A stretch of DNA of 49,224 bases, from assembly GCA_937951615.1 (NCBI GenBank), contig CALFBH010000051.1:1-49224 (forward strand). Direction: 5' to 3'. The first letter of the stretch is position 1. The number at the start of each line of letters is the position of its first letter. Shown here piece after piece: positions 1 to 38,169 of this stretch. Source of the DNA: an uncultured Saprospiraceae bacterium (GTDB lineage Bacteria; Bacteroidota; Bacteroidia; Chitinophagales; Saprospiraceae). Made by a program: the position numbers and the translations under genes. A model generated the notes under the pieces. That model worked only from the letters and a program-made list of their open reading frames with translations, had not been told where the DNA came from and searched no databases.

Positions 1-407
1 TTTTTTGAATATCGAATAACGAATATTGAACACCGAATTTCGAAGTATTTTGCCATCCAATTCACTTCAGTATTCCAGTTTTACTTGACATTTCTTCCTT
101 TCTAAATGTTCATCATTCATCTTAACTACTTCGATATTCGATATTCATCTGTATGGTTGAGCCTAGTATACTATTTTCTAATTGTCTATTCCCTTTAGGA
201 GAACTAAGAGTTGAGTGGTTGATCGAGCAAAGTAAGGTACTTTATAACAGGACTGATTACATAGATTTAAAAACGATGAGAATATCTTGTTAAGCATCAA
301 GTGCATGCCCACGCGCCTCTAGCTCCTAAGATATTTTAATCGTCATTGATACTGTAACTGCTACTGACACTGATATTACCACTCCTATTTCGTAATTTTG
401 CTAACCT
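1..407. other. gene-free left edge with inverted repeat words
   Basis: No convincing coding frame lies here. The first 45 bases are variations of the word GAATATCGAA, and bases 128-148 carry the opposite orientation (CTTCGATATTCGATATTC), so the two could pair across about 85 bases. A TTCATCATTCATC-type word lies at about 110-122. The last 15 bases hold the promoter of the next gene. The same words recur at 19628-19640 and 32495-32535. Confidence 0.6.
393..400 (+). promoter_or_regulatory. -7 promoter element TAATTTTG
   Basis: TAATTTTG matches the Bacteroidota -7 consensus TAnnTTTG exactly. It ends only 7 bases before the ATG at 408, so the transcript is predicted to start at or within a few bases of the start codon, giving a leaderless or nearly leaderless mRNA. 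Confidence 0.6.
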
Positions 408-845
408 ATGAACGATTCAAGTAGTTTTTCACAAAAAATGTCCCAGATGGTTGTGTGGGGCGATATGGACTCCTTCAAGCATGTTAATAATGTCATGTAC
501 TTTCGTTATATGGAGTCTGCCCGTGTAGAGTATTTTAGTAAAATTGGTTACACGCGTGGTGAAATTGGTGATACAGGTAAGGATGTAGGTCCAATATTAG
601 CGGAAGCTAATTGTAAATTCATCAAAGCACTTGAATATCCTGATACGGTGGAGGTGTGTACGCGGGTTTCCCGTATTGGGCGAACAAGTGTCATCATGGA
701 GCAGGCTATTATAAGTCCGAAAATAGGCTTGGCTGCTACCGGTACGGCTGTGGTGGTTTGTTATGATTATGGAAAAGAAGAAAAAGTCCCAGTTCCCGAA
801 AATATTCGACAGGCGATTGAGCACTTGGAGGGGAAGAAGTTTTGA
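408..845 (+). CDS. acyl-CoA thioesterase, 4HBT hotdog family
   Basis: A 145-residue single-domain protein of the YbgC/4-hydroxybenzoyl-CoA thioesterase family, which hydrolyses acyl-CoA thioesters in the cytoplasm. The N-terminal motif GDMDSFKHVNNVMYFRYME (about residues 18-36) is the family signature: the second Asp (about residue 21) is the expected catalytic acid, and HVNN..Y packs on the long hotdog helix. Length and the C-terminal strand pattern are normal. Start 408 is chosen because the next Met (residue 11) leaves less room before the motif and because a good -7 element lies just upstream. The gene stands alone and converges on dinB, with an inverted repeat between. The acyl substrate cannot be told from sequence. 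Confidence 0.88.
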   Translation: MNDSSSFSQKMSQMVVWGDMDSFKHVNNVMYFRYMESARVEYFSKIGYTRGEIGDTGKDVGPILAEANCKFIKALEYPDTVEVCTRVSRIGRTSVIMEQAIISPKIGLAATGTAVVVCYDYGKEEKVPVPENIRQAIEHLEGKKF

Positions 846-848
846 ATT

Positions 849-969
849 GTCCATAGTCGATGGTCGATAGACGATGGTCGATAGTTGTTTTAAAAAAACA
901 ATTCCATTTTGCTTTGCAAAATGTATCATCTGTATTTTTCCATCGACCATGGACTATCGACCATCGACC
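849..969. repeat. inverted TCGATGGTCGATAG word repeat between convergent genes
   Basis: The left arm (849-884) is built from the words CCATAGTCGATGG and TCGATAG. The right arm (940-969) carries the reverse complements (CATCGACCATGGACTATCG). A small perfect hairpin, CATTTTGC-TTT-GCAAAATG, sits between them at 905-923. The left arm begins 3 bases after the thioesterase stop and the right arm ends 7 bases before the dinB stop, so the unit fills the whole gap and could act as a two-way terminator. The same word family recurs at 5305-5333 and 23325-23392. Confidence 0.75.
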
Positions 970-975
970 TCCCCA

Positions 976-2061
976 TCATTCCCAATCAAAACGAAGTTGC
1001 TGCCCTGCTAAGTCTTCCTGCTCCTTTTCCAGATTACTGGCAGTCAGTCCGATGAGGCGTATCTTGTCGAAGGCGGTTTGGTTTTCGCGCAGCAGTCGCA
1101 GTGCCAATTGACTGATTTCTTGCTTGTCTTTTATATAATAATCTTTTGATTTACTTCTGGTGAGGGTTTGGAAATTACTGGTTTTCAGTTTGAGGGTCAA
1201 TGTCCGTCCATAATTGTCCGCTTTGTCTAATCGTTCGCAAAATTTATCTATAATATCTAGTAAAACAGGTTTGATTTCGTCTAGGGTGCTGAGGTCTTTA
1301 TTGAGTGTTCGTTCTACGCCCAATGATTTCCTGACTCGGCTAGGATTGACTGGACGATTGTCGATGCCCCGAACGATATTATAATAAAAAACGCCCATTT
1401 TACCGAAACGCCTCGCCAGTTCCAGTTGGCTTACTTTCTTGAGGTCAGCTCCAGTGTAGATGTCCATTTTTTCCATTTTAGCAGCCGTTACTTTCCCAAC
1501 GCCGAAGAAGTCTTTTACGGGCAATTTTTCTAAAAATGCCTCTGCATCCTTTGGTCGGATGATAGTCAGTCCATTGGGTTTTTTGAATCCTGAAGCGACT
1601 TTTGCCAGAAATTTACAATAAGAAACACCAGCCGAGCAGGTCAGTTGGGTTTCTTCCTCCACCTGTTTCATAATGGCTTTGGCAACATCCATTCCGTAAG
1701 GAATATTCTTTTTATTTACCGTAACATCCAAGAAAGCTTCATCCAGTGAGAGGGGTTCAATCAGGTCGGTATAATCCGCAAAAATAGCCCTGACCTGCCG
1801 GGAGACTTCCTGATAGACATCAAATCTTGGCGGGACAAAAATAAGTTGAGGGCAAAGTTGCTTCGCTCTATAGCCTGGCATAGCAGAGCGAACCCCAAAT
1901 TGTCGTGCTTCATAGCTAGCTGTTGTGGTCACGCCACGCTTGCCTCCACCACCTACTGCAATGGGTTTGCCACGCAATGCCGGATTATCTCTTTGCTCCA
2001 CCGAAGCATAAAAGGCATCCATATCAATGTGAACAATTTTTCTCGTGGCAGCAGGATCCAT
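976..2061 (-). CDS. dinB: DNA polymerase IV (Y-family, translesion)
   Basis: A 361-residue Y-family polymerase that copies past damaged template bases. The palm motifs are present: HIDMDAFYASVEQ at residues 11-23 with metal-binding Asp13, and PLSLDEAFLDV at 103-113 with Asp107 and Glu108. The helix-hairpin-helix segment (FFGVGKVTAAKMEKMDI) and little-finger region follow, with a short tail ending LRFDWE. The frame is open up to an ATG at 2115, but the start at 2061 is preferred because it places HIDMDAFYASVEQ at the family's usual distance from the N terminus and avoids overlap with the small gene ending at 2085. No clear clamp-binding motif is seen beyond the QLRFDW tail, which resembles one. 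No SOS-type operator is recognised. Confidence 0.95.
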   Translation of the reverse strand: MDPAATRKIVHIDMDAFYASVEQRDNPALRGKPIAVGGGGKRGVTTTASYEARQFGVRSAMPGYRAKQLCPQLIFVPPRFDVYQEVSRQVRAIFADYTDLIEPLSLDEAFLDVTVNKKNIPYGMDVAKAIMKQVEEETQLTCSAGVSYCKFLAKVASGFKKPNGLTIIRPKDAEAFLEKLPVKDFFGVGKVTAAKMEKMDIYTGADLKKVSQLELARRFGKMGVFYYNIVRGIDNRPVNPSRVRKSLGVERTLNKDLSTLDEIKPVLLDIIDKFCERLDKADNYGRTLTLKLKTSNFQTLTRSKSKDYYIKDKQEISQLALRLLRENQTAFDKIRLIGLTASNLEKEQEDLAGQQLRFDWE

Positions 2062-2084
2062 GATACAATGATAAACAATCCTGC

Positions 2085-2315
2085 TCACATTTTCACAAAC
2101 CGCCTGACTGTCCACTCCTTTCCTACTTGTACAGACATAAAATATACCCCCGCAGAAAACTCCGACATATCAAGAATATACCCGACACTTAGTGTTCCTG
2201 CCAATACCAGTTTTCCATCTGCATGGAATATTGTATAGTCTCCTTGCTCGATATTTTGTGCTGATATTGTAGCACAACAAAAAAGACAGAGTATAAGGAA
2301 GTAGATTCTTTGCAT
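2085..2315 (-). CDS. mini secreted protein: signal peptide plus truncated T9SS type A tail
   Basis: A 76-residue protein. Residues 1-20 (MQRIYFLILCLFCCATISAQ) form a typical signal peptide. The remainder resembles only the last two thirds of a T9SS type A sorting domain: a YTIFHADGKLVLAG strand pair, then DMSEFSAGVYFMSVQ and the basic end RRFVKM. The usual VYPNP opening of that domain is missing, and no cargo domain separates the signal from the tail. It ends 23 bases before the dinB start on the same strand. It may be the remnant of a larger secreted protein that lost its middle by deletion, or a genuine minimal T9SS substrate. The signal peptide and tail are clear; function is unknown. Confidence 0.65.
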   Translation of the reverse strand: MQRIYFLILCLFCCATISAQNIEQGDYTIFHADGKLVLAGTLSVGYILDMSEFSAGVYFMSVQVGKEWTVRRFVKM

Positions 2316-2430
2316 AATATTATTTTAAAATATAAAAAGCCGTTCGACACCATAGAACGTAATATGCTAAGATTAGGTTGCTTGTATAAGAAAAATTAAT
2401 ATTCAGGTAAAGTGCAAATTTGGAATAGTC

Positions 2431-2467
2431 AAAAAAAGAGCTTTCCAAAATATGGAAAACTCTTTTC
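2431..2467 (-). terminator. intrinsic terminator after the OsmC gene
   Basis: Read leftward, the stem AAAAGAG-TTTTCCA pairs across a short AT loop with TGGAAAG-CTCTTTT, with one internal mismatch, and runs into seven T residues. It lies 25 bases beyond the stop of the OsmC-family gene and would end the thioredoxin-OsmC transcript. Confidence 0.8.
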
Positions 2468-2491
2468 TACGGGTAAACTCGATTTATGTAA

Positions 2492-2902
2492 CTAACTCAA
2501 AGTTGTAGCATGTTCAATATCCCATTCTCCGTTTATCATTCTGTGGACATAACAGGCGTCTGCCTGCTTGAGCAATTCCGCTTTTTGCTCCTCTGTAAGG
2601 TCGCCTTCTATTTTCAAGGCAACCGCGACATGCGTGGATAGTTTGCCGCCCTTGCCTCGCTTCACGTTCATTTCCAATTCACCATCTACATCGCGAATGT
2701 CCCAGTTGTTTTTTCTGGCGATATATCGAACAGTGGCGACTTTGCACATAGCCAGACTGGACAGGATGAAATCTTCTGGTGAAAAACCCAAGTCTGTTCC
2801 TTTGCTCGTTAAGGGTTCATCTCCAAGCAGTGAATGTCTTCCGTTACTAATGAAAGATTGATAACCCGTTGGAATGTTTTTGATATTTATTTTCTTTCCC
2901 AT
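2492..2902 (-). CDS. OsmC/Ohr family protein
   Basis: A 136-residue OsmC-fold protein. Members act in the cytoplasm as thiol peroxidases that reduce organic hydroperoxides using two cysteines. Cys53, in the helix SSLAMCKVATVRYIA, and Cys117, in QADACYVHRM, occupy the family's two redox positions. The Glu/Arg that often complete the Ohr site are not obvious, so it belongs with the broader YhfA/OsmC-like group rather than true Ohr. The gene follows thioredoxin by 34 bases on the same strand, and a strong terminator closes the pair. Thioredoxin could plausibly re-reduce this protein, but that is inference. Confidence 0.88.
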   Translation of the reverse strand: MGKKINIKNIPTGYQSFISNGRHSLLGDEPLTSKGTDLGFSPEDFILSSLAMCKVATVRYIARKNNWDIRDVDGELEMNVKRGKGGKLSTHVAVALKIEGDLTEEQKAELLKQADACYVHRMINGEWDIEHATTLS

Positions 2903-2936
2903 TTTAAAATACTTTTATTGTAATTACTACTCTTTT

Positions 2937-3257: not shown

Positions 3258-3436
3258 GATTGTATTGTTTTGTTACTAAATAATTAGAGACCAATTTTTT
3301 CTTGTTCCCTTAATTGACAATGCAAAGATGAGCTAATAAAGCAGGTAGGTGATAGGCAGGAATTCCCGAAGAGTAGGTAATTTTTCCCGTTTAGGAATAA
3401 ATGAATGAGAAAATGAATGAATGAGAGATGTTATTT

Positions 3437-3643
3437 ACTACTTAGTGGTCAATCAAGTTAATATTGTCGGGTGATTAGGATGGTTGCATTGTTGAAATTG
3501 CTTCATTGCTATTGTTTTTTGCTACGCAAAAAATCACGATAACAATTTAACAATCATAGCAATAGAACAATTTGCACCAAAACCTGGCTCAAAAGATATA
3601 AAATTTAATTTACCCGACATTATTAACTGGAAGAACTACTTAG
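3437..3643. mobile_element. candidate small inverted-repeat element
   Basis: This explains most of the 382-base gap at 3258-3639. GTTAATATTGTCGGGT (3457-3472) is matched by ACCCGACATTATTAAC (3612-3627), 15 of 16 bases in inverted orientation. ACTACTTAG is repeated directly outside both (3437-3445 and 3635-3643), like a 9-bp target duplication, though the inverted repeats start about 8-11 bases inside it. The interior carries a perfect hairpin TTTTTTGC-TAC-GCAAAAAA (3515-3533) and CAAT-rich words in both orientations. There is no transposase. The right copy of the direct repeat overlaps the stop codon of the AraC gene. A mobile origin is inferred. Confidence 0.45.
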
Positions 3644-5149: not shown

Positions 5150-5326
5150 ATGAATTCAAAGCCATTGAAAAAAGGAGAAGATTATTATATCAATGAAGCG
5201 GGTTTCTATGTTTTCACTGCAAAATACCTACTTGAGCGAGGGTATTGCTGTGGCAATGGCTGTAAACATTGTCCTTATGAAGGAGAAGAAAAAGTATTAA
5301 AGAAGTCGATAGACGATTGTCCATAG
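5150..5326 (+). CDS. DUF5522 family small cysteine-motif protein
   Basis: A 58-residue protein recognised from the DUF5522 pattern: GEDYYINEAGFYVFTAKYLL followed by ERGYCCGNGCKHCPY, with Cys33, Cys34, Cys38 and Cys41 forming a likely metal site. The start at 5150 (AAAGGA 5-10 bases upstream) is chosen over an in-frame ATG at 5108 inside the preceding gene, because the family begins close to the KxGxDYY segment. The last residues (SIDDCP) and the stop codon are encoded by an intergenic repeat word of the TCGATAG family, so the natural C terminus has probably been replaced or extended by repeat sequence. Function of the family is unknown to me. Confidence 0.82.
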   Translation: MNSKPLKKGEDYYINEAGFYVFTAKYLLERGYCCGNGCKHCPYEGEEKVLKKSIDDCP

Positions 5327-5333
5327 TCGATGG
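5305..5333. repeat. TCGATAG/CCATAGTCGATGG word repeat
   Basis: A single-arm copy of the family seen at 849-969 and 23325-23392. It overlaps the 3' end of the DUF5522 gene, whose TAG stop (5324-5326) lies inside the word CCATAGTCGATGG. It sits between convergent genes. Confidence 0.7.
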
Positions 5334-5360
5334 CTGCATTATGAGTTTGCTGAACACCAA

Positions 5361-6409: not shown

Positions 6410-6499
6410 AATCTTGATGGTACTTTGACTAGTTGCCCTATTGTCAATATTTTTTTGAATTTGAATTTGACGTTTGGATTTGTATTTTCACTTCGTTAT

Positions 6500-7648
6500 T
6501 TAAAATAAACCCTGCAACCAGCCACCAAGCCACACTGCCCATTCCTGCTCATAAGCCTTAGAAAAAATATAAAACGCAAATAGCAGATAAATGCTTAACA
6601 ATAGATAGGCTTTTATGCGTCCCATACCTTTACCAATATAATAAATCAGAAAAGCAAGCACCGTCAAGAGGAAAAGTAAAGTCCACAACTCCGTAATATC
6701 TGCCACAACACCTGCGCTCATGGTAATCGGCCCTTGCAATAAGGTAAATAAGAACAGCGGAAAGCCCAATGCAAAACAAACATCAAAAATATTGCTGCCC
6801 AATGCATTCGCTACTGCATCGTCATATTCTCCGTCCATCGCATCCCGGTAAGATAAGATAGTGTCCGGCACGCTCGTTGCCGCAGCAGCCAGGATGACTG
6901 CTACAAAATAAGTATTAATGCCCAGTCCTTGTGCCGTCAATTCGCAGGCAAAAACCAGAAAAAAACAAGCGACACCAATAATCAACATAGCCATCAAAAG
7001 CAAAGTCCAGGCATTTTGGGTATTGATTTCTTTTTTTATAAAAACAGGGGCAAGGTTGAGGCTCAATAAATTATACCCGACTGACTTTTCACTATCATTT
7101 TCATAAAAGTCATCCTCTTCTTCACTCTGTGTTTTTTCCGACATGGTACTGAACATTATTATAACATAAATACTGTACAAGAACATCAGCATCAAGCCAT
7201 GCCACCAATATAAAGTCGTACCTGAGATTAGTAAAATCAGACAAATTTCCACTGCAATCAAGGATAAGCCATCTCGCAAAATCACTTTTCGGGACACCTC
7301 CACCTTGTTCACCATCCCCATACCAATGACAGCCAAAATCACGACTGCAGGAATAATCATCCCATTAAAAACAGCACTGCCTGCCGTTGTGCCTACGCCG
7401 CCTGCAAAACCATCATTTGCTAGTTCGGGATCGTGGATGAAATAGGCATAATAAATAAAAAAGAAAAGTGTGGTGAACAACTCCGGCATAGAACTGCCGA
7501 TGGCATTAATCGTCGCCCCGCGCACTCCGTCAGATAGGTTGCGCCCCAAATACTCCGATGCTACTTCAAAACCATCACTGGCCCGCCAGATGACAATGCA
7601 ACAAAACAAAATAATCAATATACCTGCAAGTAGTCCCATGATTGGCAA
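6500..7648 (-). CDS. sodium/calcium exchanger family membrane protein
   Basis: A 382-residue CaCA-superfamily antiporter, expected to exchange Ca2+ for Na+ or H+ across the inner membrane. Two inverted alpha-repeats are visible: NAIGSSMPELFTT (48-60) with GTTAGSAVFNGM (86-97), and ATSVPDTILSYRDA (257-270) with NALGSNIFDVCF (281-292). The acidic residues Glu56 and Asp262 take the ion-binding positions; the second repeat has Asp where many exchangers have Glu. About ten membrane segments are split by an acidic loop (residues 171-188, EKTQSEEEDDFYENDSEK), a plausible Ca2+ sensor. A long double palindrome lies 36-81 bases upstream of the start. The transported ion is inferred from family. Confidence 0.88.
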   Translation of the reverse strand: MPIMGLLAGILIILFCCIVIWRASDGFEVASEYLGRNLSDGVRGATINAIGSSMPELFTTLFFFIYYAYFIHDPELANDGFAGGVGTTAGSAVFNGMIIPAVVILAVIGMGMVNKVEVSRKVILRDGLSLIAVEICLILLISGTTLYWWHGLMLMFLYSIYVIIMFSTMSEKTQSEEEDDFYENDSEKSVGYNLLSLNLAPVFIKKEINTQNAWTLLLMAMLIIGVACFFLVFACELTAQGLGINTYFVAVILAAAATSVPDTILSYRDAMDGEYDDAVANALGSNIFDVCFALGFPLFLFTLLQGPITMSAGVVADITELWTLLFLLTVLAFLIYYIGKGMGRIKAYLLLSIYLLFAFYIFSKAYEQEWAVWLGGWLQGLF

Positions 7649-9059: not shown

Positions 9060-9134
9060 AAGCAATTTAACCTTAATAGCCCCGTCACATTTTCCATCAT
9101 TTACGAGTTGCGAGACTTTGGCAAACGACTAAAA

Positions 9135-9180
9135 GATAAAAGAAAAGCCGATTCAAATTTGAATCGGCTTTTCTTTTATC
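9135..9180. terminator. 46-base perfect palindrome, bidirectional terminator
   Basis: Arms 9135-9157 and 9158-9180 are exactly complementary over 23 bp with no loop. Each contains an A-rich outer part (GATAAAAGAAAA) and the core GCCGATTCAAA. It lies between the convergent DUF3467 and T9SS genes, with T-runs leaving in both directions, so it should stop both transcripts. Confidence 0.88.
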
Positions 9181-19588: not shown

Positions 19589-19936
19589 TTGGGTTGCGAG
19601 TTGCGGGTTGGGCGAGTTGTTCAATTACTTCGATATTCATGTTGGAGTTTTCTGAATTTTAAAAAAGAGTTTTGGGCTTTTGGTTTTGGCAAATACACTT
19701 TTATAAAACATTATTATGAAAGTAAATAAACCAAATGTTCCTCCCTCAGAACCCAAGACCCAAAACTCTAAACGAAATGTGCATAATTAGAGCTGATAGA
19801 CATTTCTACCAGCCCTGATCAATAATTACGCTAAGGTAAAATCTCATTGTTTTTCAAGATATATTCTCTTATTATTTGTTATTTCATAAAAGTCCTAAAG
19901 TTTGTAGTTTCATAAGGCAAAAAAGCATCTTAATAC
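19589..19936. repeat. gene-free gap with several word repeats
   Basis: No reliable gene. Directly after the PKD stop lies GGGTTGCGAGTTGCGGGTTG, then ACTTCGATATTC (another family). AGAGTTTTGGG (19666-19676) is matched in inverted orientation by CCCAAAACTCT (19759-19769) about 80 bases on, each followed or preceded by further TTTTGG or CCAAGACC words. No T-tailed stem typical of a terminator is seen, although the inverted pair could serve as one. Confidence 0.6.
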
Positions 19937-20702: not shown

Positions 20703-20738
20703 TGTGTTGGTTGTTGAGTTGTTGAGTTGCGAGTTGTC

Positions 20739-20880
20739 GGGTTGCGGGTTGCGGGTTGTCGGGTTGCGGGTTGTCGGGTTGCGGGTTGTCGGGTTGTCGG
20801 GTTGCGGGTTGCGGGTTGTCGGGTTGCGGGTTGTCGGGTTGTCGGGTTGCGGGTTGTCGGGTTGCGGGTTGTCGGGTTGC
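20739..20880. repeat. two-word tandem array of GGGTTGC and GGGTTGTC
   Basis: Nineteen uninterrupted units of two kinds, a 7-mer S (GGGTTGC) and an 8-mer L (GGGTTGTC), in the order S S L S L S L L S S L S L L S L S L S: ten S and nine L, 142 bases with no other base. A degenerate lead-in (GTTGAGTTGCGAGTTGTC) precedes it from about 20712. Runs of three G every 4-5 bases on the + strand satisfy the G-quadruplex pattern many times over. It sits between ubiA and the ykgJ-like gene, 37 bases before the latter's start. It is not a CRISPR, since there are no spacers. Confidence 0.95.
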
Positions 20881-20915
20881 GCATCGGGGCGTTTTTTGAA
20901 CCACTAAGGTTTGAT

Positions 20916-20945
20916 TTATCATTCATAGTTCATCATTCATCATTC
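20916..20945. repeat. TTCATCATTCATC word repeat at the ubiA stop
   Basis: Bases 20918-20945 repeat the words ATTCATAG, TTCATCATTCATCATTCA. Read leftward the ubiA stop TGA (20944-20946) is the first base triplet of the repeat (TGAATGATGAATGATGAAC). The same words occur at 110-122, 22763-22820 and 28870-28890. Confidence 0.7.
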
Positions 20946-21804
20946 AAATAACGCTGTCCAAAATTACGCAAATTCCCAAAAACATGCTGGCGAATCCATT
21001 GGTGGTGAAAAAAGCGAGATTGACACGGCTGAGGTCATTGGGTTTTACTAAGGTATGTTGATAGCCTAATAGGAGAACAAAAACACCTGTTCCCAACCAA
21101 GTCAGCCAATTAAATGCGGGGAGACTTTGTAGGAAGTAAGCGGCAGCAATAATTAAAACTGCGCAGATAAAATGAAGAAAAGTGGAGAGTTGCAAAGCTC
21201 TGCCTTTACCAAGAAAAACAGGAATAGATTTCAGATTTAAAGAACGGTCAAATTCTTCGTCTTGCAAGGCATAAATAATATCAAAACCAGACACCCAGCA
21301 TAAAACCGCAAAGGAATAGAGTAGCGGAATGAGATCGAATGTGCCTCCCGCAGCGAGGTAGGCACCGATAGGTGCTAATGCCAACCCGAGTCCGAGTACA
21401 AAATGACATAAAGCTGTAAAACGCTTGGTATAACTATAACCCAGAATCACTAATAAAGCAATAGGGGAAAGGTAAAAGCAAAGTGGATTGATAAAATAGG
21501 TGGTCGCAATAAACAAAAGGCTTGAGATAATGACAAACCATAAAGCGGACTTGGCTGTAATAATACCTGCGGGAATTTCGCGCTGTATAGTCCGTGGATT
21601 TTTTTCGTCAATATCCCGATCTAAGTAGCGATTAAAAGCCATTGCTGCACTTCGTGCAAAGACCATGCAGAATAACATGAGTACAAATAAGCGGATATCG
21701 AAATAGGTATTAAATTGCTGTAAAGCAATAAAAAAACCAATCAACGCAAATGGCAATGCGAATATGGTGTGGCTAAATTTGATTAAAGAAAGGTAGTGTT
21801 TCAT
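20944..21804 (-). CDS. ubiA: UbiA-family prenyltransferase
   Basis: A 286-residue polytopic membrane enzyme that transfers a polyprenyl chain to an aromatic acceptor. Both Asp-rich motifs are present: NRYLDRDIDEKNPRT (58-72) and DIIYALQDEEFDRSL (175-189), with about eight membrane helices. The family is annotated as 4-hydroxybenzoate polyprenyltransferase. In menaquinone-making Bacteroidota such proteins are often the futalosine-pathway enzyme MqnP, and since ubiquinone is not expected here, that role is more likely than true UbiA. It follows uppP, another polyprenyl enzyme, in the same leftward run. The substrate is inferred. Confidence 0.85.
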   Translation of the reverse strand: MKHYLSLIKFSHTIFALPFALIGFFIALQQFNTYFDIRLFVLMLFCMVFARSAAMAFNRYLDRDIDEKNPRTIQREIPAGIITAKSALWFVIISSLLFIATTYFINPLCFYLSPIALLVILGYSYTKRFTALCHFVLGLGLALAPIGAYLAAGGTFDLIPLLYSFAVLCWVSGFDIIYALQDEEFDRSLNLKSIPVFLGKGRALQLSTFLHFICAVLIIAAAYFLQSLPAFNWLTWLGTGVFVLLLGYQHTLVKPNDLSRVNLAFFTTNGFASMFLGICVILDSVI

Positions 21805-21880
21805 TTTAAATGCTTTGTGAAATCACATTTAAAACCCCTAAAAAGCAGATAAGTTGAGTTAAAATCCAAAATTCAAAATT

Positions 21881-21950
21881 TTCTCGCAAAGTCGCGAAGG
21901 CGCAAAGTTTTTAATTTGCAATAAGCCCATTCGTAATTCGTAATTAATTC
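21881..21950. repeat. CGCAAAG-type and ATTCGTAATT-type words between uppP and ubiA
   Basis: Two word families lie side by side. TTCTCGCAAAGTCGCGAAGG continues into CGCAAAG (21881-21908), and CATTCGTAATTCGTAATTAA covers 21929-21948. The second runs into the uppP stop (TGA, 21949-21951). The 144-base gap contains nothing else recognisable. Confidence 0.65.
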
Positions 21951-22752: not shown

Positions 22753-22762
22753 GTAATGTGAA

Positions 22763-22820
22763 ACGATAAATGATGAATGATGAACGATGAATTTTAAATT
22801 CACCACTTAAATTCATCATT
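22763..22820. repeat. TGATGAATGATGAA word repeat between DUF3098 and uppP
   Basis: AACGATAAATGATGAATGAT and GAACGATGAATTTTAAATT cover 22762-22800. AAATTCATCATT (22809-22820) is the inverted word, so GATGAATTT/AAATTCATC can form a hairpin. Translated, it gives the FIVHHSSFIV string that falsely lengthens the uppP frame. The unit spans the whole gap and reaches the DUF3098 stop codon. Confidence 0.75.
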
Positions 22821-23199: not shown

Positions 23200-23324
23200 T
23201 ACTTTATCGTGTTGATGTATTGTGGTGTTGGTGTGTTGTCGTGCAAAGTTAAGATATTAGTGCGAATTTTTGCCTAAAGAAAATATTAATTGCCGTTAAA
23301 GGCGCGTTAATAATTCTATTTGGA

Positions 23325-23392
23325 GGTCGATGGTCAATAGTCCATGGTCGATGGCTGTCTTAGCTTCGACTATTGACCATCGACTATGGACG
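23325..23392. repeat. inverted TCGATGGTC word repeat between ftsX and DUF3098
   Basis: Left arm GGTCGATGGTCAATAGTCCA continues to TGGTCGATGG (23325-23354). Right arm CGACTATTGACCATCGACTA ends TGGACG (23367-23392) in the opposite orientation. It lies inside a presumed operon rather than at a convergent junction, so terminator function is less likely here. It is a member of the family at 849-969 and 5305-5333. Confidence 0.75.
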
Positions 23393-27828: not shown

Positions 27829-28878
27829 CTAAACACGCAATAAATCTATCGCAATTCTGGAAAAACTCTCTGCAGCCAATCCAAATTTTTCCATGCGGGC
27901 ATCCGTTGATTTACCTAATACAAAACGTTGATATAATTGCTGTGAAATAACCGCCAATTTTATTAGGGCGAAAGCCTGATACCAGTTCATTCTATCCATA
28001 GAGAACCCGGTATGTGCTGCATATTTTTCAATCAAATAAGTGCGGTTGGGAAAATTGCCTTCTAGTTTGAGCAGAGGAGGAACTTGGTATTTTTGATTGA
28101 AAGCATAATCTGGCCAATACATTAATAAGGTAGCAAAATCGACTAATGGATCGCCTAAAGTGGTCATGTCCCAATCAAAAATAGCGGTCACTTCATCAGG
28201 ATTGTCGGGCTGAAATTGGCAATTGTCGAATTTAATGTCATTGTGAATAATGGCCACTGCCTGTGCTTTGGGTATATCTTCATTGAGCTTCGCCAATACC
28301 GTATCCATATCGGGAACTTCTTTAGTTTTCGATAAATTCCAACGCTTTGTCCAGCCGGCTACCTGACGTTGTAGAAAACCATCCGGCTTGCCGAGTTGAG
28401 TCAGTTCAGCTTTTTCTACATCAACAGTATGCAATTGGGCTAAAGCCTGAATTAAAGCATCGGTCAGTCGTTCTTCTGCTCGTTCAAATTCCTTAAAACA
28501 ATCTAGCAATTTAGTTCGTATCACTACGCCCGATTTGCGTTCCATAACGACGAAAGGCGCACCAATAATAGCTTCATCATCACAAAAATGATAGGCGCGT
28601 GGTGCTTGTGGAAAGTGTTTGTACAATTTGGACAACACCCGATATTCTCGCTTCATATCATGTGCTCCAGGCGCGATTTTACCAAAAGGCGGACGACGAA
28701 CCACCAACTCGGTATCTCCAAGAGTAATCAAGTAAGTCAGGTTGGCATGGCCGCCATGAAACTGGGCCACCTGCATGTCACCTTCCAGTTCTGGAATCGC
28801 CTGTCGAAGATAAGTTTCGAGAGATTGCCAGTCGAGTTCTTCGCCTTTTCTGACTTCATTTGCTTTGTCATTCATCAT
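27829..28878 (-). CDS. APH-fold phosphotransferase (ACAD10/11-like kinase)
   Basis: A 349-residue protein-kinase-like phosphotransferase. The nucleotide loop region AQFHGGHANLTYLI (38-51) and LVVRRPPFG (58-66) are present. The catalytic loop is AIIHNDIKFDNCQF (209-222) with Asp214 and Asn219, and the metal-binding motif is AIFDWDMTTLGDPLVD (232-247) with Asp235. This subfamily is usually linked with acyl-CoA dehydrogenases and hydroxy-acyl phosphorylation, as in animal ACAD10/11, rather than with antibiotic resistance. The natural partner gene is not next door. Its N terminus (MMNDK) is written in ATGATGAATGACAAA, similar to the adjoining TGATGAATGA words. It stands alone on the minus strand. 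Confidence 0.88.
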   Translation of the reverse strand: MMNDKANEVRKGEELDWQSLETYLRQAIPELEGDMQVAQFHGGHANLTYLITLGDTELVVRRPPFGKIAPGAHDMKREYRVLSKLYKHFPQAPRAYHFCDDEAIIGAPFVVMERKSGVVIRTKLLDCFKEFERAEERLTDALIQALAQLHTVDVEKAELTQLGKPDGFLQRQVAGWTKRWNLSKTKEVPDMDTVLAKLNEDIPKAQAVAIIHNDIKFDNCQFQPDNPDEVTAIFDWDMTTLGDPLVDFATLLMYWPDYAFNQKYQVPPLLKLEGNFPNRTYLIEKYAAHTGFSMDRMNWYQAFALIKLAVISQQLYQRFVLGKSTDARMEKFGLAAESFSRIAIDLLRV

Positions 28879-28902
28879 TTGTCATTTTCATTTCCCCACG
28901 CA

Positions 28903-28936
28903 CACCTCATTCCTAAAGGACGCCCTGCCCGTGAGG
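28903..28936. repeat. TCCTAAAGGA / CTGCCCG word pair
   Basis: The string CATTCCTAAAGGACGCCCTG is followed by CCCGTGAGG. In reverse complement it reads CGGGCAGGGCGTCCTTTAGG, which resembles CGGGCAGATTCTCCTTTAGG at 38100-38119 in the gldF-gldG gap. It is probably another dispersed intergenic family. It sits just upstream of the APH-fold gene and contains CCTCA/TGAGG arms. Confidence 0.5.
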
Positions 28937-32368: not shown

Positions 32369-32429
32369 AACACGCTAAGAGAAAACAAACTTTCGGAACG
32401 GGTATAGAAAGATTTTGCTAGCTTCAAAT

Positions 32430-32560
32430 TAATTACGAATTATGAATGGTTTAATTACGAATTTACCAGTTTGCCAGTTCAACTCGCAACTTATCGGAAT
32501 ATCGAACATCGAACAGAAAAATATCGAATTACGAAGTAATGTAATCAACTCGCAACTCGT
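32430..32560. repeat. composite word repeats running into the dapA 3' end
   Basis: Three families stand in a row: AATTACGAATTATGAATGGT with TTAATTACGAATT (32430-32463), AACTCGCAAC (32480-32489), and CGGAATATCGAACATCGAAC then ATATCGAATTACGAAG (32495-32536). The last contains the dapA stop (TTA at 32529-32531, leftward). AATCAACTCGCAACTCG (32543-32559) lies within the final codons of dapA. Confidence 0.7.
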
Positions 32561-33434
32561 TCAACTGCTCCATAGCGATGCGCATTTTCTCCACCATTGC
32601 AGGCGACATGGCTACTAGTGGAAGTCGAACTTCTTTTTCACAAATGCCTTGTATGTTGAGCGCAGCTTTTACACCGGCAGGATTGCCTTCTACGAAAAGC
32701 AGATTCATAATGTCCAGTAAACTGAAATGTAGTTGAGCAGCAGTTTTGAAATCACCAGCTAGTCCGGCACGTACCAAATCAGAAAATTCGCGGGGATGTG
32801 AATTGGCTACAACAGAAATGACACCATCCATACCAAAAGACAACATGGGGAGCGTCAGGAAATCATCGCCTGACAAGACTAGAAAATCGTCTGGTTTTCC
32901 TTTTATAATGTCCATGCATTGAGCCAGATTGCCAGAGGCTTCTTTTACGGCAATAAATTGTTTGCTGGAATGTGCGAGACGCAAAGTAGTTTCAGCGGAA
33001 ATATTGGAACTGGTGCGTCCTGGTACATTATAAATGATAATTGGTCGCGGCGCAGCCTCTGCGAGTGCCATAAAATGCTGGTAAATACCTTCCTGTGTAG
33101 GTTTATTATAATAAGGACTCACAGCTAGAATAGCTGCTATGCCTTCGAAATGAAAATTGTGAAATTTATCAATAACTGCCTGTGTATGGTTACCGCCAAA
33201 ACCTGCGACAATGGGTACACGCTCATTGACTGTTTGTATAGTAAAATTTAAAACTTCGACGGATTCTTCCCAATTCAATGTTACGGATTCACCAGTTGTA
33301 CCCAGCGAAACAAGAAACTCCAAACCTCCGTCAATTGTATGTTCGATGACGTTTTTCAGTCCGTCAAAGTCAATTTTTCCATTGCGAAAAGGCGTGACAA
33401 GCGCGACGCCAGTTCCTCGAAATTGTTGATTCAT
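32529..33434 (-). CDS. dapA: 4-hydroxy-tetrahydrodipicolinate synthase
   Basis: A 301-residue TIM-barrel enzyme that condenses pyruvate with aspartate semialdehyde in lysine and diaminopimelate synthesis. Catalytic residues are present: Lys164 (IAVKEASG), Tyr135 and Arg140 (IIYNVPGRTS), and the TTGES segment at 46-50. The start overlaps the stop of the DUF6913 gene by 4 bases (ATGA), so translation is probably coupled. The C-terminal end (NELRVDYITS) is encoded by GAGTTGCGAGTTG-type and ATTACTTCGTAATTCG-type intergenic words, and the stop lies within the latter. The tail is thus probably not original, but it is short enough not to affect the barrel. Confidence 0.96.
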   Translation of the reverse strand: MNQQFRGTGVALVTPFRNGKIDFDGLKNVIEHTIDGGLEFLVSLGTTGESVTLNWEESVEVLNFTIQTVNERVPIVAGFGGNHTQAVIDKFHNFHFEGIAAILAVSPYYNKPTQEGIYQHFMALAEAAPRPIIIYNVPGRTSSNISAETTLRLAHSSKQFIAVKEASGNLAQCMDIIKGKPDDFLVLSGDDFLTLPMLSFGMDGVISVVANSHPREFSDLVRAGLAGDFKTAAQLHFSLLDIMNLLFVEGNPAGVKAALNIQGICEKEVRLPLVAMSPAMVEKMRIAMEQLNELRVDYITS

Positions 33435-33982
33435 TCCGGTCGATTGATAATTTTCAAATAATATTCTATTTGTTCGGAGAAGCCTTTCAAATCATAATCA
33501 TTGGCAACATCTACCATGAAATCGTAGGCTTCTTTATTGTCTTCTCTTGCACGTCCAACCCTAATGTGTGCATTGGAAATAGCAGAGACGTATTCTAGTG
33601 GAGGGGAAGGGTGTAGGTGCAAACTAATCAGAATGTCAAAAGACTGATTAGCAAATTCGCTTACAATCTGACTTTTGGGATGCCAGTACCAGGAAAGGTC
33701 TTTTTTGTTGAAATATTTGAAAATAACATTGCTGTGTTCTTGCTTGTCATCAAAGTATCCCAGAATACTCACCTGTTTGCCGCGTTCGAGTAGTGTTTCT
33801 CGGTATTCATTCATAAATACGCAGTTGGCCGACGATGAAGCGTCGAATAATATACCAATCGTCCTCGCACGGTCAAAGTTAATCGCCTCCCGAGGGCGAT
33901 CTGTGCGCCGGAGTTCTGCCAGCTTTTTCCTTAAGACGCGCTGATAAAATTTATACCGAAGGTTATTCACCTTTTGAAACAT
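33431..33982 (-). CDS. DUF6913 family protein
   Basis: A 183-residue cytoplasmic protein found beside dapA in many Bacteroidota. It begins with a basic helix (NNLRYKFYQRVLRKKLAELR), followed by an alpha/beta domain with TIGILFDASSSANCVFMNEY, GKQVSILGYFDD, FNKKDLSWYWHPKSQIVSEF and FDILISLHLHPSPPLEYVSA. The HLHPSPPLEY segment with two His is the most conserved-looking patch. No function is established. It sits 11 bases after accA and overlaps dapA by 4, so the three genes form one operon. It may bear on envelope precursor supply, by context only. Confidence 0.85.
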   Translation of the reverse strand: MFQKVNNLRYKFYQRVLRKKLAELRRTDRPREAINFDRARTIGILFDASSSANCVFMNEYRETLLERGKQVSILGYFDDKQEHSNVIFKYFNKKDLSWYWHPKSQIVSEFANQSFDILISLHLHPSPPLEYVSAISNAHIRVGRAREDNKEAYDFMVDVANDYDLKGFSEQIEYYLKIINRPE

Positions 33983-33993
33983 ATTTTTTACAG

Positions 33994-35136: not shown

Positions 35137-35166
35137 AGGCTGATTTAAGGCGATGTCCGATGTTAT

Positions 35167-35222
35167 AATTCGTAATTAACCCATTCGTAATTCGTAATTA
35201 ATTAACTAATTCGTAATTAACC
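35167..35222. repeat. ATTCGTAATT word repeat just before the DUF4340 start
   Basis: AATTCGTAATTAACC, CATTCGTAATTCGTAATTAA and TTAACTAATTCGTAATTAAC follow one another up to 5 bases before the ATG. This places the family in a 5' leader, in contrast to its 3' positions at 21929-21948 and 32430-32463. Confidence 0.75.
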
Positions 35223-35227: not shown

Positions 35228-36139
35228 ATGAACAACAAAACACTACTTATTGTATTTTTAGCCTTATTGGGCATTTTTTTATTATCTAAATTATTTGACA
35301 CCAATAAACGAGTCAAAAGTTTTGACACAGAGCTTATTGCATTGGATACCGCAAGTATAAGCTCCATTATATTATATCCTAAAGCAGATGGACACGCAGA
35401 AACTCGACTTGAAAAGTCGGCAAATATCTGGACAGTGAGTCGAAACGGACAATCTTATCCGGCTGATCAGAATGCAATTAAATCATTATTGCCCGGACTC
35501 GCAGAAACAAAAGTCAAGCGCATGGTTGCTCGTTCTAAAGACAAATGGGAACAATACGAAGTAACGGACTCACTGGGTACACGAGTAAAAGTATATGCAG
35601 GGAAAAAAGAACTGGCAGATTTAATGATTGGTAAATTTACTTTTCAGCAAGAACCGCAGAGCATGACTTCGTTCGCTCGTCGCACCAAAGAAAATGACGT
35701 CTATGCGATAGATGGATTTTTAAGCATGGCTTATAATCGAGGCTTAGATGCCTGGCGCGATAAGTCTTTTATAAACGTAGATCCAAATAATATCAATAAA
35801 CTGACTTTCGATACACCGGAAGGGCAGCAAGTCATACAACAAGTTAGCGGAGAATGGATGGCTGGTAGCCGTGCATTAGATTCGCTAAGTGTAGCGACCT
35901 ATCTGAATATATTTAAAAACATGAACAATCAGCAGTTTGCTAGTCCAGTCAGCACAGCAGCCACGCATAGCTTAATGCTGGAAGGAAATAATATGCAGTC
36001 AGTCAATATCCGTTGTTTTGCAGACGGCGGTCAGTATGTATTGAATACCACAGCAAGTCCCGATGTTTGGGCAAAGAGCGATGCGAATGGCTTGTTTAAG
36101 CGTATTTTTACGGATGGATTAGCTTTAAACGAAAAATAA
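35228..36139 (+). CDS. DUF4340-like membrane-anchored protein beside the gld ABC genes
   Basis: A 303-residue protein. It has an N-terminal membrane anchor (TLLIVFLALLGIFLLSKLF, residues 4-22) and a periplasmic beta-rich domain that resembles DUF4340: SSIILYPKADGHAETRLEKS, IWTVSRNGQSYPADQNAIKS, VKVYAGKKELADLMIGK, YAIDGFLSMAYNRGLDAWRD, then NINKLTFDTPEGQQVIQQVS. DUF4340 proteins commonly travel with ABC-2 exporters whose partner is GldG-like, and here the gldA-gldF-gldG genes follow. A stem-loop and a new promoter lie between this gene and gldA, so it is only partly co-transcribed. Likely a fourth component of the gliding ABC complex, by context. Confidence 0.8.
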   Translation: MNNKTLLIVFLALLGIFLLSKLFDTNKRVKSFDTELIALDTASISSIILYPKADGHAETRLEKSANIWTVSRNGQSYPADQNAIKSLLPGLAETKVKRMVARSKDKWEQYEVTDSLGTRVKVYAGKKELADLMIGKFTFQQEPQSMTSFARRTKENDVYAIDGFLSMAYNRGLDAWRDKSFINVDPNNINKLTFDTPEGQQVIQQVSGEWMAGSRALDSLSVATYLNIFKNMNNQQFASPVSTAATHSLMLEGNNMQSVNIRCFADGGQYVLNTTASPDVWAKSDANGLFKRIFTDGLALNEK

Positions 36140-36146
36140 AATAGAA

Positions 36147-36173
36147 AAGCGAGACACTAATAAGGTTTCGCTT
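36147..36173 (+). terminator. weak stem-loop after the DUF4340 gene
   Basis: AAGCGAGAC (36147-36155) pairs with GTTTCGCTT (36165-36173) through one G-T pair, around a 9-base loop, 8 bases after the stop. No long T-run follows, so termination is probably partial. Confidence 0.45.
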
Positions 36174-36237
36174 CTGATTCTAACTCATGTATTAATAGAA
36201 TTAACAAAATCTATTTCCATAAAAAAAAGAAATACCT

Positions 36238-36245
36238 TATTTTTG
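36238..36245 (+). promoter_or_regulatory. -7 promoter element TATTTTTG for gldA
   Basis: An exact TAnnTTTG match with a predicted start about 80 bases before the gldA ATG at 36334. With the stem-loop after the DUF4340 gene it suggests that gldA-gldF-gldG have their own transcript. Confidence 0.6.
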
Positions 36246-36333
36246 CGTTCGAAAACAGAAAGGTGATAACACCACAACACGGCAACATAGCGTTTTGAGC
36301 AATTAACAAATTTTTACAAGTTGGAATACACTT

Positions 36334-37263
36334 ATGAACATAAAGATCCAAAACCTCACCAAACGTTACGGCGTACAAAAAGCCGTTGACGATATTTCTT
36401 TTGAGGTCAAAACAGGTGAAATTCTCGGCTTTCTCGGCCCGAATGGCGCAGGGAAAACCACCACAATGAAACTCATCACCAATTTCCTTGAAGTACAGGA
36501 AGGTGATATTAGCATTGACGGAAAGTCCATTAAAAACCACGCAGAAACACTCAAGCGACATATTGGTTACCTGCCCGAACACAATCCACTTTACATAGAT
36601 ATGGGTGTACTCGATTACTTGGGATTTTGTGCAGCACTCCAACAAGTACCCAAACAAGCTATACCCGAACGCATACGCGAAATGGTACGCCTTTGCGGAT
36701 TAGATCGTGAAAAACACAAACGCATCAGTGAATTGTCCAAGGGATATCGGCAGCGGGTCGGGCTGGCTCAAGCTATGATCCACGATCCAAAAATTCTGAT
36801 TCTGGATGAACCGACCACCGGACTCGATCCAAACCAAATTGTGGAAATACGAGAATTGATTCGCCAATTGGGACAACAAAAAACGGTTATTCTCAGCACG
36901 CATATTCTGCCGGAAGTAGAAGCTACTTGTGATCGTATCCTCATTATCAATCGAGGAAAAATTGTTGCAGATGGTACTTCTGCGACCCTTCGCAAACAAG
37001 CACAAGGGAAAGAAGTGCTGCGTGTACGCATTGAAGACGGCGATAGCGAAACGGTTTTTTCTGCCTTACAAAATATCTATACCACAGAACTGGTCGATAT
37101 TCTCGATAAGGGCAATCACCTTTTTGAAGTACAGAGCGTAACAGATATGTCTTCTAAGCGGGAAGTGTTTCAGCTTTGCGCAAAAAACAACTGGGTGCTT
37201 ACAGAAATGACCCCGCTGGAAACCAAACTGGAAGACATCTTCCGCGACCTGACTTTGAATTAG
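36334..37263 (+). CDS. gldA: gliding motility ABC transporter ATP-binding protein GldA
   Basis: A 309-residue ABC ATPase. The Walker A motif is GPNGAGKTT (35-43), the signature LSKGYRQRVGLAQAM (134-148), and Walker B ILILDEPTTGLDP (154-166). The switch His is in VILSTHILPEVEATCD. The C-terminal about 80 residues (KEVLRVRIEDGDSETVFSAL onwards) are the family's accessory domain. It powers the GldFG membrane component and is needed for gliding in Flavobacterium-type bacteria. In Flavobacterium johnsoniae gldA is remote from gldFG; here the three are contiguous. The gap to gldF is filled by a word repeat. Confidence 0.93.
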   Translation: MNIKIQNLTKRYGVQKAVDDISFEVKTGEILGFLGPNGAGKTTTMKLITNFLEVQEGDISIDGKSIKNHAETLKRHIGYLPEHNPLYIDMGVLDYLGFCAALQQVPKQAIPERIREMVRLCGLDREKHKRISELSKGYRQRVGLAQAMIHDPKILILDEPTTGLDPNQIVEIRELIRQLGQQKTVILSTHILPEVEATCDRILIINRGKIVADGTSATLRKQAQGKEVLRVRIEDGDSETVFSALQNIYTTELVDILDKGNHLFEVQSVTDMSSKREVFQLCAKNNWVLTEMTPLETKLEDIFRDLTLN

Positions 37264-37350
37264 TAAACGGTGATGAGTGATTAGTAACTAGTGATTAATT
37301 CACCAGTTATCAATTACCAGTCACCAATCACGAATTACCAATTACCAAAA
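37264..37350. repeat. GTGATTAGTAACTAGTGATT word repeat filling the gldA-gldF gap
   Basis: The gap between the gldA stop (37263) and gldF ATG (37352) consists wholly of such words: GTGATGAGTGATTAGTAACT, AGTGATTAATTCACCAG, then TTATCAATTACCAGTCACCA and ATCACGAATTACCAATTACC. The first half has GTGATTA in one orientation and the second has the reverse complements, so it can fold back on itself. Confidence 0.75.
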
Positions 37351-37351
37351 T

Positions 37352-38071
37352 ATGAATCCTCTCTGGACTGTTGCAAAACGTGAATTAGCCTCTTTTTTTG
37401 ATTCGCTGATTGCTTATATTCTACTCATTATTTTTCTGGTCTTTTGCGGGCTGTTCACTTGGCTATATGGTAGCGATATTTTTCTGGTTGGACAAGCTTC
37501 CTTACAGGCTTTTTTCAGTATTGCCATCTGGGTCTTGCTGTTTTTTATTCCTGCGCTGACCATGCGTATGATTGCAGAAGAAAAACGAAACGGCACCATT
37601 GAATTATTACTCACCAAAGCGGTCAGCGATCGCCAACTGGTCACCGGAAAATTTCTGGCTTGCCTCCTATTGGTTATTATTGCACTGGCTTTCACCCTGC
37701 CCTACTATATCTCAGTTAGTATGTTGGGAGATGTAGATCATGGCGCAGTTTGGTGTGGCTATCTTGGACTTATTCTGATGAGTGCAGCTTATATTGCTAT
37801 CGGCTTGCTGGCGAGTAGTATTACCGACAATCAGATTGTCGCTTTTTTATTGGCTATCGCAATGGGTGTTGTCTTTATGTTGCTACTTGGTTTTATTGGA
37901 AACGGGCTGCCCGGTATTTTGGGAGAGACATTGAGTTATCTGGATTTTCGAGGACATTTTGGCTCTATGGCAAGGGGTGTTATTGACACCAAAGACGTGA
38001 TTTATTTCCTTTCGGTAACGGCATTAGGATTGCTTTTGACGGAAGTCAGCATCAGCCGCTTGAGAGCTTGA
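37352..38071 (+). CDS. gldF: gliding motility ABC transporter permease GldF
   Basis: A 239-residue ABC-2 type permease with six membrane helices. The N terminus NPLWTVAKRELASFFDSLIA is typical of GldF, followed by AYILLIIFLVFCGLFTWLYG. RMIAEEKRNGTIELLLTKAV is the characteristic cytoplasmic loop contacting the ATPase, and SDRQLVTGKFLACLLLVIIA the next helix. It forms the membrane channel with GldG and is driven by GldA. Length is normal for the family. It is separated from gldG by 98 bases with a TCCTTTAGGA word. Confidence 0.93.
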   Translation: MNPLWTVAKRELASFFDSLIAYILLIIFLVFCGLFTWLYGSDIFLVGQASLQAFFSIAIWVLLFFIPALTMRMIAEEKRNGTIELLLTKAVSDRQLVTGKFLACLLLVIIALAFTLPYYISVSMLGDVDHGAVWCGYLGLILMSAAYIAIGLLASSITDNQIVAFLLAIAMGVVFMLLLGFIGNGLPGILGETLSYLDFRGHFGSMARGVIDTKDVIYFLSVTALGLLLTEVSISRLRA

Positions 38072-38097
38072 ACAGTAGCAACAGCAATTAAAATACT

Positions 38098-38136
38098 TGC
38101 GGGCAGATTCTCCTTTAGGAAGTTAGAGGCGAGCAA
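38098..38136. repeat. CGGGCAG / TCCTTTAGGA word repeat in the gldF-gldG gap
   Basis: CGGGCAGATTCTCCTTTAGG is followed by AAGTTAGAGGCGAG. It matches, in reverse orientation, the string at 28903-28936, and CCCTTTAGGAG occurs at about 191-201. TCCTTTAGGA is itself nearly palindromic. Confidence 0.5.
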
Positions 38137-38169
38137 GGGCAATTGCAATATCTTCAATCAAAAGAAAAA

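What the first reader, a model, noticed from the sequence alone, without database searches (positions are those of the whole stretch)
1..38140. Ten or so families of word-like intergenic repeats, each gap carrying its own set
Gaps are filled by quasi-periodic strings made of short variable words. Families: GAATATCGAA (1-45, 128-148, 19628-19640, 32495-32536); TCGATGGTCGATAG (849-969, 5305-5333, 23325-23392); CAATTTAACAATCATAGCAA (about 3490-3575); TTCATCATTCATC (110-122, 20916-20945, 22763-22820); GGGTTGC/GGGTTGTC (20712-20880, 19595-19617); CGCAAAGTCGCGAAGG (21881-21908); ATTCGTAATT (21929-21948, 32430-32463, 35167-35222); GTGATTAGTAACTAG (37264-37350); CCCAAAACTCT (19666-19769); TCCTTTAGGA (28903-28936, 38098-38136). 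They stay out of gene interiors, often occur in both orientations, and in the ftsX run each gap has a different family. No standard class (REP, ERIC, CRISPR, MITE) fits. A template-slippage or repair process acting on intergenic DNA, or a shared binding role, are open ideas.
Basis: partly seen in the sequence, partly recalled or inferred. Interest (0 to 1): 0.72.

Follow-up and report, generated by a model that had tools for sequence, protein, structure and literature searches.

The report
Heptad-armed mobile repeats between genes
The odd repeated words between this bacterium's genes are mostly the two mirror-image arms of small repeat units; one word family is clearly an old jumping DNA element with dozens of copies, and several other word families are built on the same plan.

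Summary
The strings are real: mostly arrays of 7-nt (also 8-nt) words, far commoner between genes than inside them. Most families have a fixed polarity and often form two inverted arms. Many units of different families share an apex hairpin, TTTTGC-nnn-GCAAAA (73 in gaps, 5 in genes, in a 1.25-Mb sample). Units come and go whole: at 4 of 16 orthologous junctions one species of the genus is almost empty and another holds a complete unit.

One family is solved. The TCGATGGTCGATAG words are subterminal heptads of a non-autonomous element of 159-186 bp with a conserved interior, terminal inverted repeats GTAACAGTTTAG, and 8-bp target duplications (mean identity 5.75/8; swapped flanks 2.75). At least 40 places in the genome match. 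Structurally this is a MITE, so "no standard class fits" is wrong for it. For the other families mobility is inferred; an end test was inconclusive.

The enzyme was not found: no IS66 transposase domain in this genome, no Y1 transposase in an element-rich sister genome. Heptameric intergenic repeats are known from several phyla without explanation. New here: heptads as MITE arms, the shared apex, and the inward G-rich polarity across many word families.

The parts
849..884 (+). left arm of a GTCSATR unit, starting 3 bp after the stop codon of gene 447-845
905..923 (.). apex hairpin CATTTTGC-TTT-GCAAAATG of that unit
940..969 (-). right (inverted) arm of that unit; a degenerate copy without GTAAC ends
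5305..5337 (+). solo GTCSATR arm followed by GGCTGC
23325..23392 (.). two inverted GTCSATR arms with only about 19 bp between them (read as a deletion derivative)
3470..3640 (.). ATTGTTG-type unit with apex hairpin at 3515-3533; similar to C4:27099-27391
3396..3426 (+). AATGAATGAG words; the orthologous gaps in G005 and G003 carry other units here
6454..6500. CAAATTC-type string (dispersed cluster 3)
19589..19640 (.). GGGTTGC words and a TTCGATATTC word
19664..19771 (.). inverted pair AGAGTTTTGGG...CCCAAAACTCT, not a heptad array
   Evidence: read directly
20712..20881 (+). long GTTGCGG/GTTGTCGG array of 7- and 8-nt words
20914..20946 (-). ATGATGA-type arm at the other edge of the same gap
21878..21948 (.). 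CGCAAAG words, then ATTCGTAATT words
22765..22820 (.). ATGATGAA unit with inverted arms; G001 has 6 bp here, G005 a unit of other words
23207..23243 (+). GTGTTGATG-type arm
28856..28885 (.). TCATTTG/TCATCAT words
28903..28936 (.). TCCTAAAGGA palindrome string, not a heptad
   Evidence: read directly
32428..32560 (.). AATTACGAA, CAACTCG and GAATATCGAA words in a convergent gap
35166..35222 (.). ATTCGTAATTA words upstream of gene 35228
37264..37351 (.). GTGATTA/GGTAATT unit with inverted arms, fills the gap; G001 has 6 bp here
38098..38136 (.). TCCTTTAGGA string, member of a small dispersed cluster of 3

Best explanation
The gaps hold several families of small non-autonomous elements built on one plan: an arm of 7/8-nt words, a central stretch (often the AT-rich triloop hairpin TTTTGC-nnn-GCAAAA), and an inverted arm. 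Shown for the GTCGATG/GTCCATA family: a unit of 159-186 bp with ends GTAACAGTTTAG, subterminal heptads and a conserved asymmetric interior lies at dozens of places and is flanked by 8-bp target duplications, so it is a MITE by structure. Inferred: it was moved by a transposase acting in trans that recognises the ends, with the heptads as likely repeated binding sites, and that enzyme is now lost or unidentified. Inferred for the other families: they are or were mobile in the same way, because units are dispersed, near-empty junctions exist in sister species, and different units occupy the same junction. Word number inside arms then varies by slippage, and selection removes units that fall in genes or promoters.
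For: GTCSATR family: 40 places in G000, the query itself included, at 79-97% identity apart from itself, 36 of them over at least 125 of 141 bases (only 40 of 316 candidates were scored, so a lower bound). Alignment of 29 copies shows GTAACAGTTTAG ends. 16 of 29 copies keep both ends within 3 mismatches; in these 4 have an 8/8 duplication (a 0-2 base shift allowed; swapped flanks mean 0.37, maximum 3 of 2,000), and adjacent 8-mers agree at 5.75 of 8 positions against 2.75, sd 0.31, 0 of 10,000 swaps reaching it (the length 8 was chosen). End-to-end length 159-186 bp in 10 copies. Common plan: apex hairpin 73 in gaps against 5 in genes, inward-reading words on both sides in 56 of 73, same family in 49 of 73; inverted repeats of score 40 or more in 103 of 668 gaps against 6 of 668 shuffled. 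Empty sites at 4 of 16 orthologous junctions.
Against: No autonomous partner found: IS66 DDE domain 0 in G000, and no such ends or arms around the five IS66 matches of sister genomes. For the non-GTCSATR units the test for target duplications was negative (22 units, 4.32 against 4.37 for swapped flanks), but the same crude method also missed them in GTCSATR (7 units, 4.43 against 4.17), so it is inconclusive. In one search words in the opposite orientation stand left of 10 and right of 9 of 73 apexes. 33 of 73 gaps with paired arms have no apex. GTCSATR arms occur in other phyla without this interior, which a single MITE does not explain.
Confidence: 0.62

Rival explanations
1. Local slippage: replication or repair with a 7-nt step creates arrays independently at each gap, perhaps where hairpins stall the polymerase; selection keeps them out of genes.
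For: Excess of periods 7 and 8; word numbers vary (4 to 16 copies of GTCGATG); heptamers are said to be the commonest long simple repeats, with a polymerase-footprint proposal by Mrazek et al. as cited in PMC4679880 and PMC4692102 (passages).
Against: Conserved non-repetitive interior, ends and target duplications in the GTCSATR family; the same mixed words at hundreds of sites; whole-unit empty sites.
Confidence: 0.2
2. Selected RNA or DNA hairpins: the inverted arms are kept because they terminate, insulate or stabilise transcripts; words are free to drift as long as the arms pair.
For: Inverted arms, apex hairpin, more strings in convergent (91 of 114) and tandem (290 of 448) than divergent gaps (75 of 146).
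Against: Arms of one gap are not more complementary than arms of different gaps: GTCSATR 27 pairs 0.744 against 0.777, GTGTTG 15 pairs 0.689 against 0.734; three other families had too few pairs. Sister species lack the unit altogether at 4 of 16 junctions.
Confidence: 0.12
3. Break-end extension: an enzyme adds G/T-rich heptads to both 3' ends of a broken gap, telomerase-like, and the ends are then joined.
For: The strand read from the gap edge inward has more G than C in 69.5 of 79 edge-hugging arrays of every gap type, 26 of 29 in same-genus relatives and 12 of 13 in other genera; units nested in units; the same polarity for G-rich heptamers in Xanthomonas and Nostoc (PMC4692102 sections 13 and 16).
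Against: Ku absent from G000 and the four same-genus genomes tested; the proven family has ordinary transposon ends; in the named-genome loci the bias is weak (41 G>C, 24 G<C, 14 equal).
Confidence: 0.04

Closest known systems
MITEs, in particular BrickBuilt of Porphyromonas gingivalis (PMC4596501, passages read)
   Same: Short, non-coding, dispersed, terminal inverted repeats, internal tandem repeats, in Bacteroidetes; for GTCSATR also target duplications
   Different: BrickBuilt has 23-nt repeats and 19 segments in one genome; here the repeats are 7-nt words forming the subterminal arms themselves, and many word families share one plan and one apex hairpin
Heptameric intergenic repeats: GGGAATC/GGGGAYT (PMC4692102: passages, sections 13 and 16), TAACTGA (PMC4679880: passages), four-heptamer elements of Geobacter (PMC2700814: passages); cyanobacterial STRR repeats (recalled)
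   Same: 7-nt period, mostly intergenic, sometimes inverted pairs, G-rich strand placed the same way relative to genes (PMC4692102)
   Different: Reported as single word families; in the passages read no interior, ends or target duplications are given
REPINs with RAYT transposases (PMC3116915, passages read)
   Same: Dispersed inverted doublets forming hairpins between genes; singlets as remnants
   Different: No Y1 transposase in element-rich G001; 8-bp target duplications and long TIRs here
IS66 family (GTAA ends, 8-bp duplications: recalled from ISfinder, not from a call)
   Same: End tetranucleotide and duplication length
   Different: No IS66 transposase domain in this genome and no matching ends around five matches in sister genomes

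Membership tests
MITE (GTCSATR family) | Terminal inverted repeats | tested here: met
   GTAACAGTTTAG at both ends within 3 mismatches in 16 of 29 copies
MITE (GTCSATR family) | Target-site duplication | tested here: met
   8 bp; 5.75/8 against 2.75/8 for swapped flanks
MITE (GTCSATR family) | 50-1000 bp, no transposase gene, many copies, mostly intergenic | tested here: met
   159-186 bp in 10 copies; at least 40 places
MITE (GTCSATR family) | Cognate transposase with the same ends | tested here: inconclusive
   None found; only IS66 and Y1 domains were looked for, and end pairs 1-4 kb apart in a list of 63 end-like places proved to be two separate units in the one case checked
MITE (other word families) | Target-site duplication | tested here: inconclusive
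   22 units, 4.32 against 4.37; method insensitive
REPIN | RAYT (Y1) transposase in the genome | tested here: not met
   0 Y1_Tnp in G001, which has 40 apex copies; G000 has 4 matches
IS66-derived MITE | IS66 transposase present or matching ends | tested here: not met
Heptameric long simple sequence repeats | Tandem 7-nt units, intergenic excess | tested here: met
CRISPR / ERIC | Spacer-repeat array / ERIC consensus | not tested
   no Rfam family in the window at gathering score; no specific search made

The most novel reading that the evidence does not exclude
The heptad arrays found between genes in many phyla are, in general, phased arms of a class of elements whose mobilising machinery reads the 7-nt phase, the inward G/T-rich strand and a small apex hairpin rather than a fixed sequence. 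That would explain why unrelated word families share one plan, why words differ at the same junction between sister species, and why the same polarity is reported in Xanthomonas and Nostoc.
Probability: 0.2. Interest if true: 0.8.

Novelty: new variant of a known kind. Interest (0 to 1): 0.58.

Why it matters
Heptameric intergenic repeats have been reported in Xanthomonas, Nostoc, Beggiatoaceae, Geobacter and others, with their function left open. Here one such word family is tied to defined element ends, target duplications, a conserved interior and dozens of copies, and other word families share its plan. The question of what these heptads are becomes testable: look for the same anatomy around other word families, and for the enzyme.

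Tried and rejected
All-frame stop-codon arrays: stops on the inward strand are not clearly above unit-permuted arrays (3' edges 112 against 100.4, sd 12.6, p 0.19; 5' edges 101 against 85.9, sd 8.9, p 0.05) and are rarer than at gap edges without arrays (4.2-4.5 against 6.6 per 100 nt). Stops on the other strand at 3' edges are fewer than permuted (21 against 48.8, sd 10.9); not explained.

Fold-back copying or matched stems; the two arms of a GTCSATR element are two different heptad series.

REPIN/RAYT, Ku-dependent joining, IS66 parent. Known RNA family: 0 in the window. Pure arrays of one word could still arise independently; the fixed order in 24 of 24 paired loci (81 unpaired) carries more weight.

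Limits of the counts. Genes are my own hexamer-based calls on 1.25 Mb, 18% of the genome. Searches used 80 of the 105 named loci; all 105. include one run of N among the arrays; one search leaves it out. loop-3 totals include 1,804 N positions; 18 of 29 units are linked to 15 or more others, but some links may rest on the apex alone. One search did not mask arrays, so some of its 914 links rest on words only. One search scored 40 of 316 candidates in G000. GTAACAGTTTAGGTC with at most 2 mismatches has 63 places, the reversed control 42, so single places are weak evidence; 10 are exact. One search dropped 13 of 29 copies that lack both ends. One search selects 10-mers partly by low genic count, so its coverage contrast (42,497 of 159,509 intergenic against 35,751 of 1,071,510 genic positions) is partly built in; searches are not. 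Weaker polarity: GTTGCGG 105:61, GCCACGAAT 18:11, the palindromic apex none; two patterns had 0 and 3 gaps.

Print: searches of the open library listed no paper that, from its title or abstract start, describes these elements or the shared apex. Mrazek 2007, Mazel 1990 and the minihairpin literature were not read (recalled or cited by others). PMC3733652 was seen as a listing only; PMC4060949 as two passages.
Full report
Setting. The window is the whole contig C51 of a 6.96-Mb draft genome in 142 contigs. The family is probably Saprospiraceae, because a named Saprospiraceae MAG carries a relative of the element interior; this is inference.

Observation. The strings are present as described. 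I sampled 1.25 Mb of the genome, called 998 genes (86% coding) and compared 903 gaps with the genes. Intergenic self-similarity peaks at lags 7 and 8. Period-7 and period-8 arrays number 85 and 71 in gaps, against 7 and 6 after shuffling, and 7 and 10 in six times as much coding sequence; period 6 is also raised (54 against 10, genes 21). Of gaps of at least 60 bp, 91 of 114 convergent, 290 of 448 tandem and 75 of 146 divergent ones carry enriched words. Arrays sit close to gene edges: 45 of 74 within 20 bp at 3' edges and 45 of 74 at 5' edges.

Polarity. GTCSATR is read from the gap edge inward 110:29, and in 23 of 23 paired gaps the order is + then -. Others: GTGTTGATG type 106:26, GAGTTGATT 65:7, AATTACG 48:12, ATGATGA 33:6, GTGATT 64:28, CAAATTC 62:23, GAATATC 44:18, and weaker GTTGCGG 105:61 and GCCACGAAT 18:11. 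The inward strand has more G than C in 69.5 of 79 edge-hugging arrays of all gap types, while edges without arrays have G/(G+C) of 0.51-0.60. Relatives: 26 of 29 in the genus, 12 of 13 in other genera of the family or order, but only 41 against 24 (14 equal) in the named loci. Rehm et al. describe the same placement for G-rich heptamers in Xanthomonas and Nostoc.

Shared apex. TTTTGC-nnn-GCAAAA occurs 73 times in gaps and 5 times in genes of the sample. Loops: AAA 26, GAA 19, GTA 14, ATA 4, GCA 3, GGA 2, AGA 2, ATG 2, AGC 1. Inward-reading words stand on both sides in 56 of 73, of the same family in 49; opposite words stand left of 10 and right of 9. An apex of this or a slightly looser form is in 40 of 73 gaps with paired same-family arms, 27 of 171 one-sided and 13 of 464 without words. 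ATTTTGCNNNGCAAAAT has 220 copies in this genome (control 0), 40 in G001, 12 in G005, 16 in G365, 4 in G019; 27 of 150 family genomes have any. Such GC-closed triloops are recalled as unusually stable DNA hairpins; not tested.

Units come and go whole. Twenty-seven comparisons at 16 orthologous junctions were recovered from five same-genus genomes. At 4 of 16, one species has almost nothing and another a complete unit: window 37264-37351, 88 bp against 6 in G001; window 22753-22818, 66 bp against 6 in G001 and 77 bp of other words in G005; C41:18893-19024, 132 against 8; and the junction at 33430, where the genes overlap in the window and G001 but G002-G005 carry 54-174 bp. Nested units are seen in G005 (gap 3258-3639) and G004 (gap 33815-33993).

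The solved family. Of 29 paired GTCSATR units in the sample, 18 are linked by similarity to at least 15 others. One copy used as query matches 40 places in G000, itself included, 36 of them over at least 125 of 141 bases and at 79-97% identity; only 40 of 316 candidates were scored. G001 has 48 matches, many of them an arm only; G002-G005 have 0-2. Twenty-nine aligned copies show ends GTAACAGTTTAG followed by heptads. In the 16 copies that keep both ends, adjacent 8-mers agree at 5.75 of 8 positions against 2.75 (sd 0.31) for swapped flanks, and none of 10,000 swaps reached that. End-to-end length is 159-186 bp in 10 copies. This meets the structural definition of a MITE. The two arms of an element are two different heptad series, which fits the finding that arms within a gap are not especially complementary. 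The window holds a degenerate copy (849-969), a solo arm (5305-5337) and a probable deletion derivative (23325-23392). A second GTCGATG-rich element with hairpin GTCGAGTGCC/GGCACTCGAC has 4 to 16 tandem words and lies at the starts of contigs C10 and C41.

Other families. Unmasked gap-to-gap comparison links 293 gaps; nine clusters have 20 or more members. Window gaps fall in the clusters of GTCSATR, GTGTTG/GTTG, GAGTTGATT/GTGATT, CAAATTC, ATTGTTG and TCCTTTAGGA. Their ends and duplications were not resolved.

Beyond the genus. Four-word GTCSATR arrays occur in 105 listed stretches of named genomes of many phyla (capped list). Where arms are paired the order is + then - in 24 of 24 (81 unpaired). 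The interior is shared by L162 (75.5% over 143 bp) and in part by L231, both from one Saprospiraceae MAG; the other matches are arms or weak. The apex is in 3 of 105 (L162, L182, L231). Why the words recur elsewhere without the interior is not explained.

Who moves it. No Ku in G000 or four same-genus genomes; no IS66 domain in this genome and no such ends near the five IS66 matches of sister genomes; no Y1 transposase in G001. The enzyme is unknown.

Verdict. The reading changes from ten classless repeat families to several families of small elements with heptad arms, one of them a demonstrated MITE. Shown: periodicity, polarity, shared apex, dispersal, empty junctions, and for one family ends and target duplications. 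Inferred: transposase in trans, heptads as binding sites, mobility of the other families, slippage within arms.

Noticed in passing
window 9084-9180 and L089 (G001): A terminator-like hairpin (AAAAGCCGATTC...GAATCGGCTTTT) is kept at the same place in G001 with a changed stem sequence.
   Followed up: no
L242 (G365:C1, core at locus 1501-1517): The same apex sits in a long near-perfect inverted repeat without heptads (GGCGTGTGTGTTTTG...CAAAACACACACGCC) in another genus.
   Followed up: no
L060-L058 region C31:18540-18800 and C41:82441-83471: Another dispersed inverted element, CTGGACTTTGGAC...GGGTATTAGG, cluster 4 (24 gaps).
   Followed up: no
C31:19271-19604, C31:39966-40266, C60:78447-79016: A dispersed element with ends AG(T/G)AATGGTAAAAAAATAA in inverted pairs and no heptads.
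   Followed up: no
C10:1-189 and C41:1-188: Assembly contigs begin inside long GTCGATG arrays, so such arrays break the assembly and are undercounted.
   Followed up: partly
20-kb samples of other family and order genomes: Period-7 arrays of other words are present in some genomes (G007, G016, G019, G022, G027, G028, G033, G056) and absent from the samples of others; no period-5, -10 or -11 arrays were seen in any sample.
   Followed up: partly
f42 genomes such as G180: The reversed control pattern itself is common (up to 78 and 42) in one other family, apparently another heptad word (TAGCTGA type).
   Followed up: no
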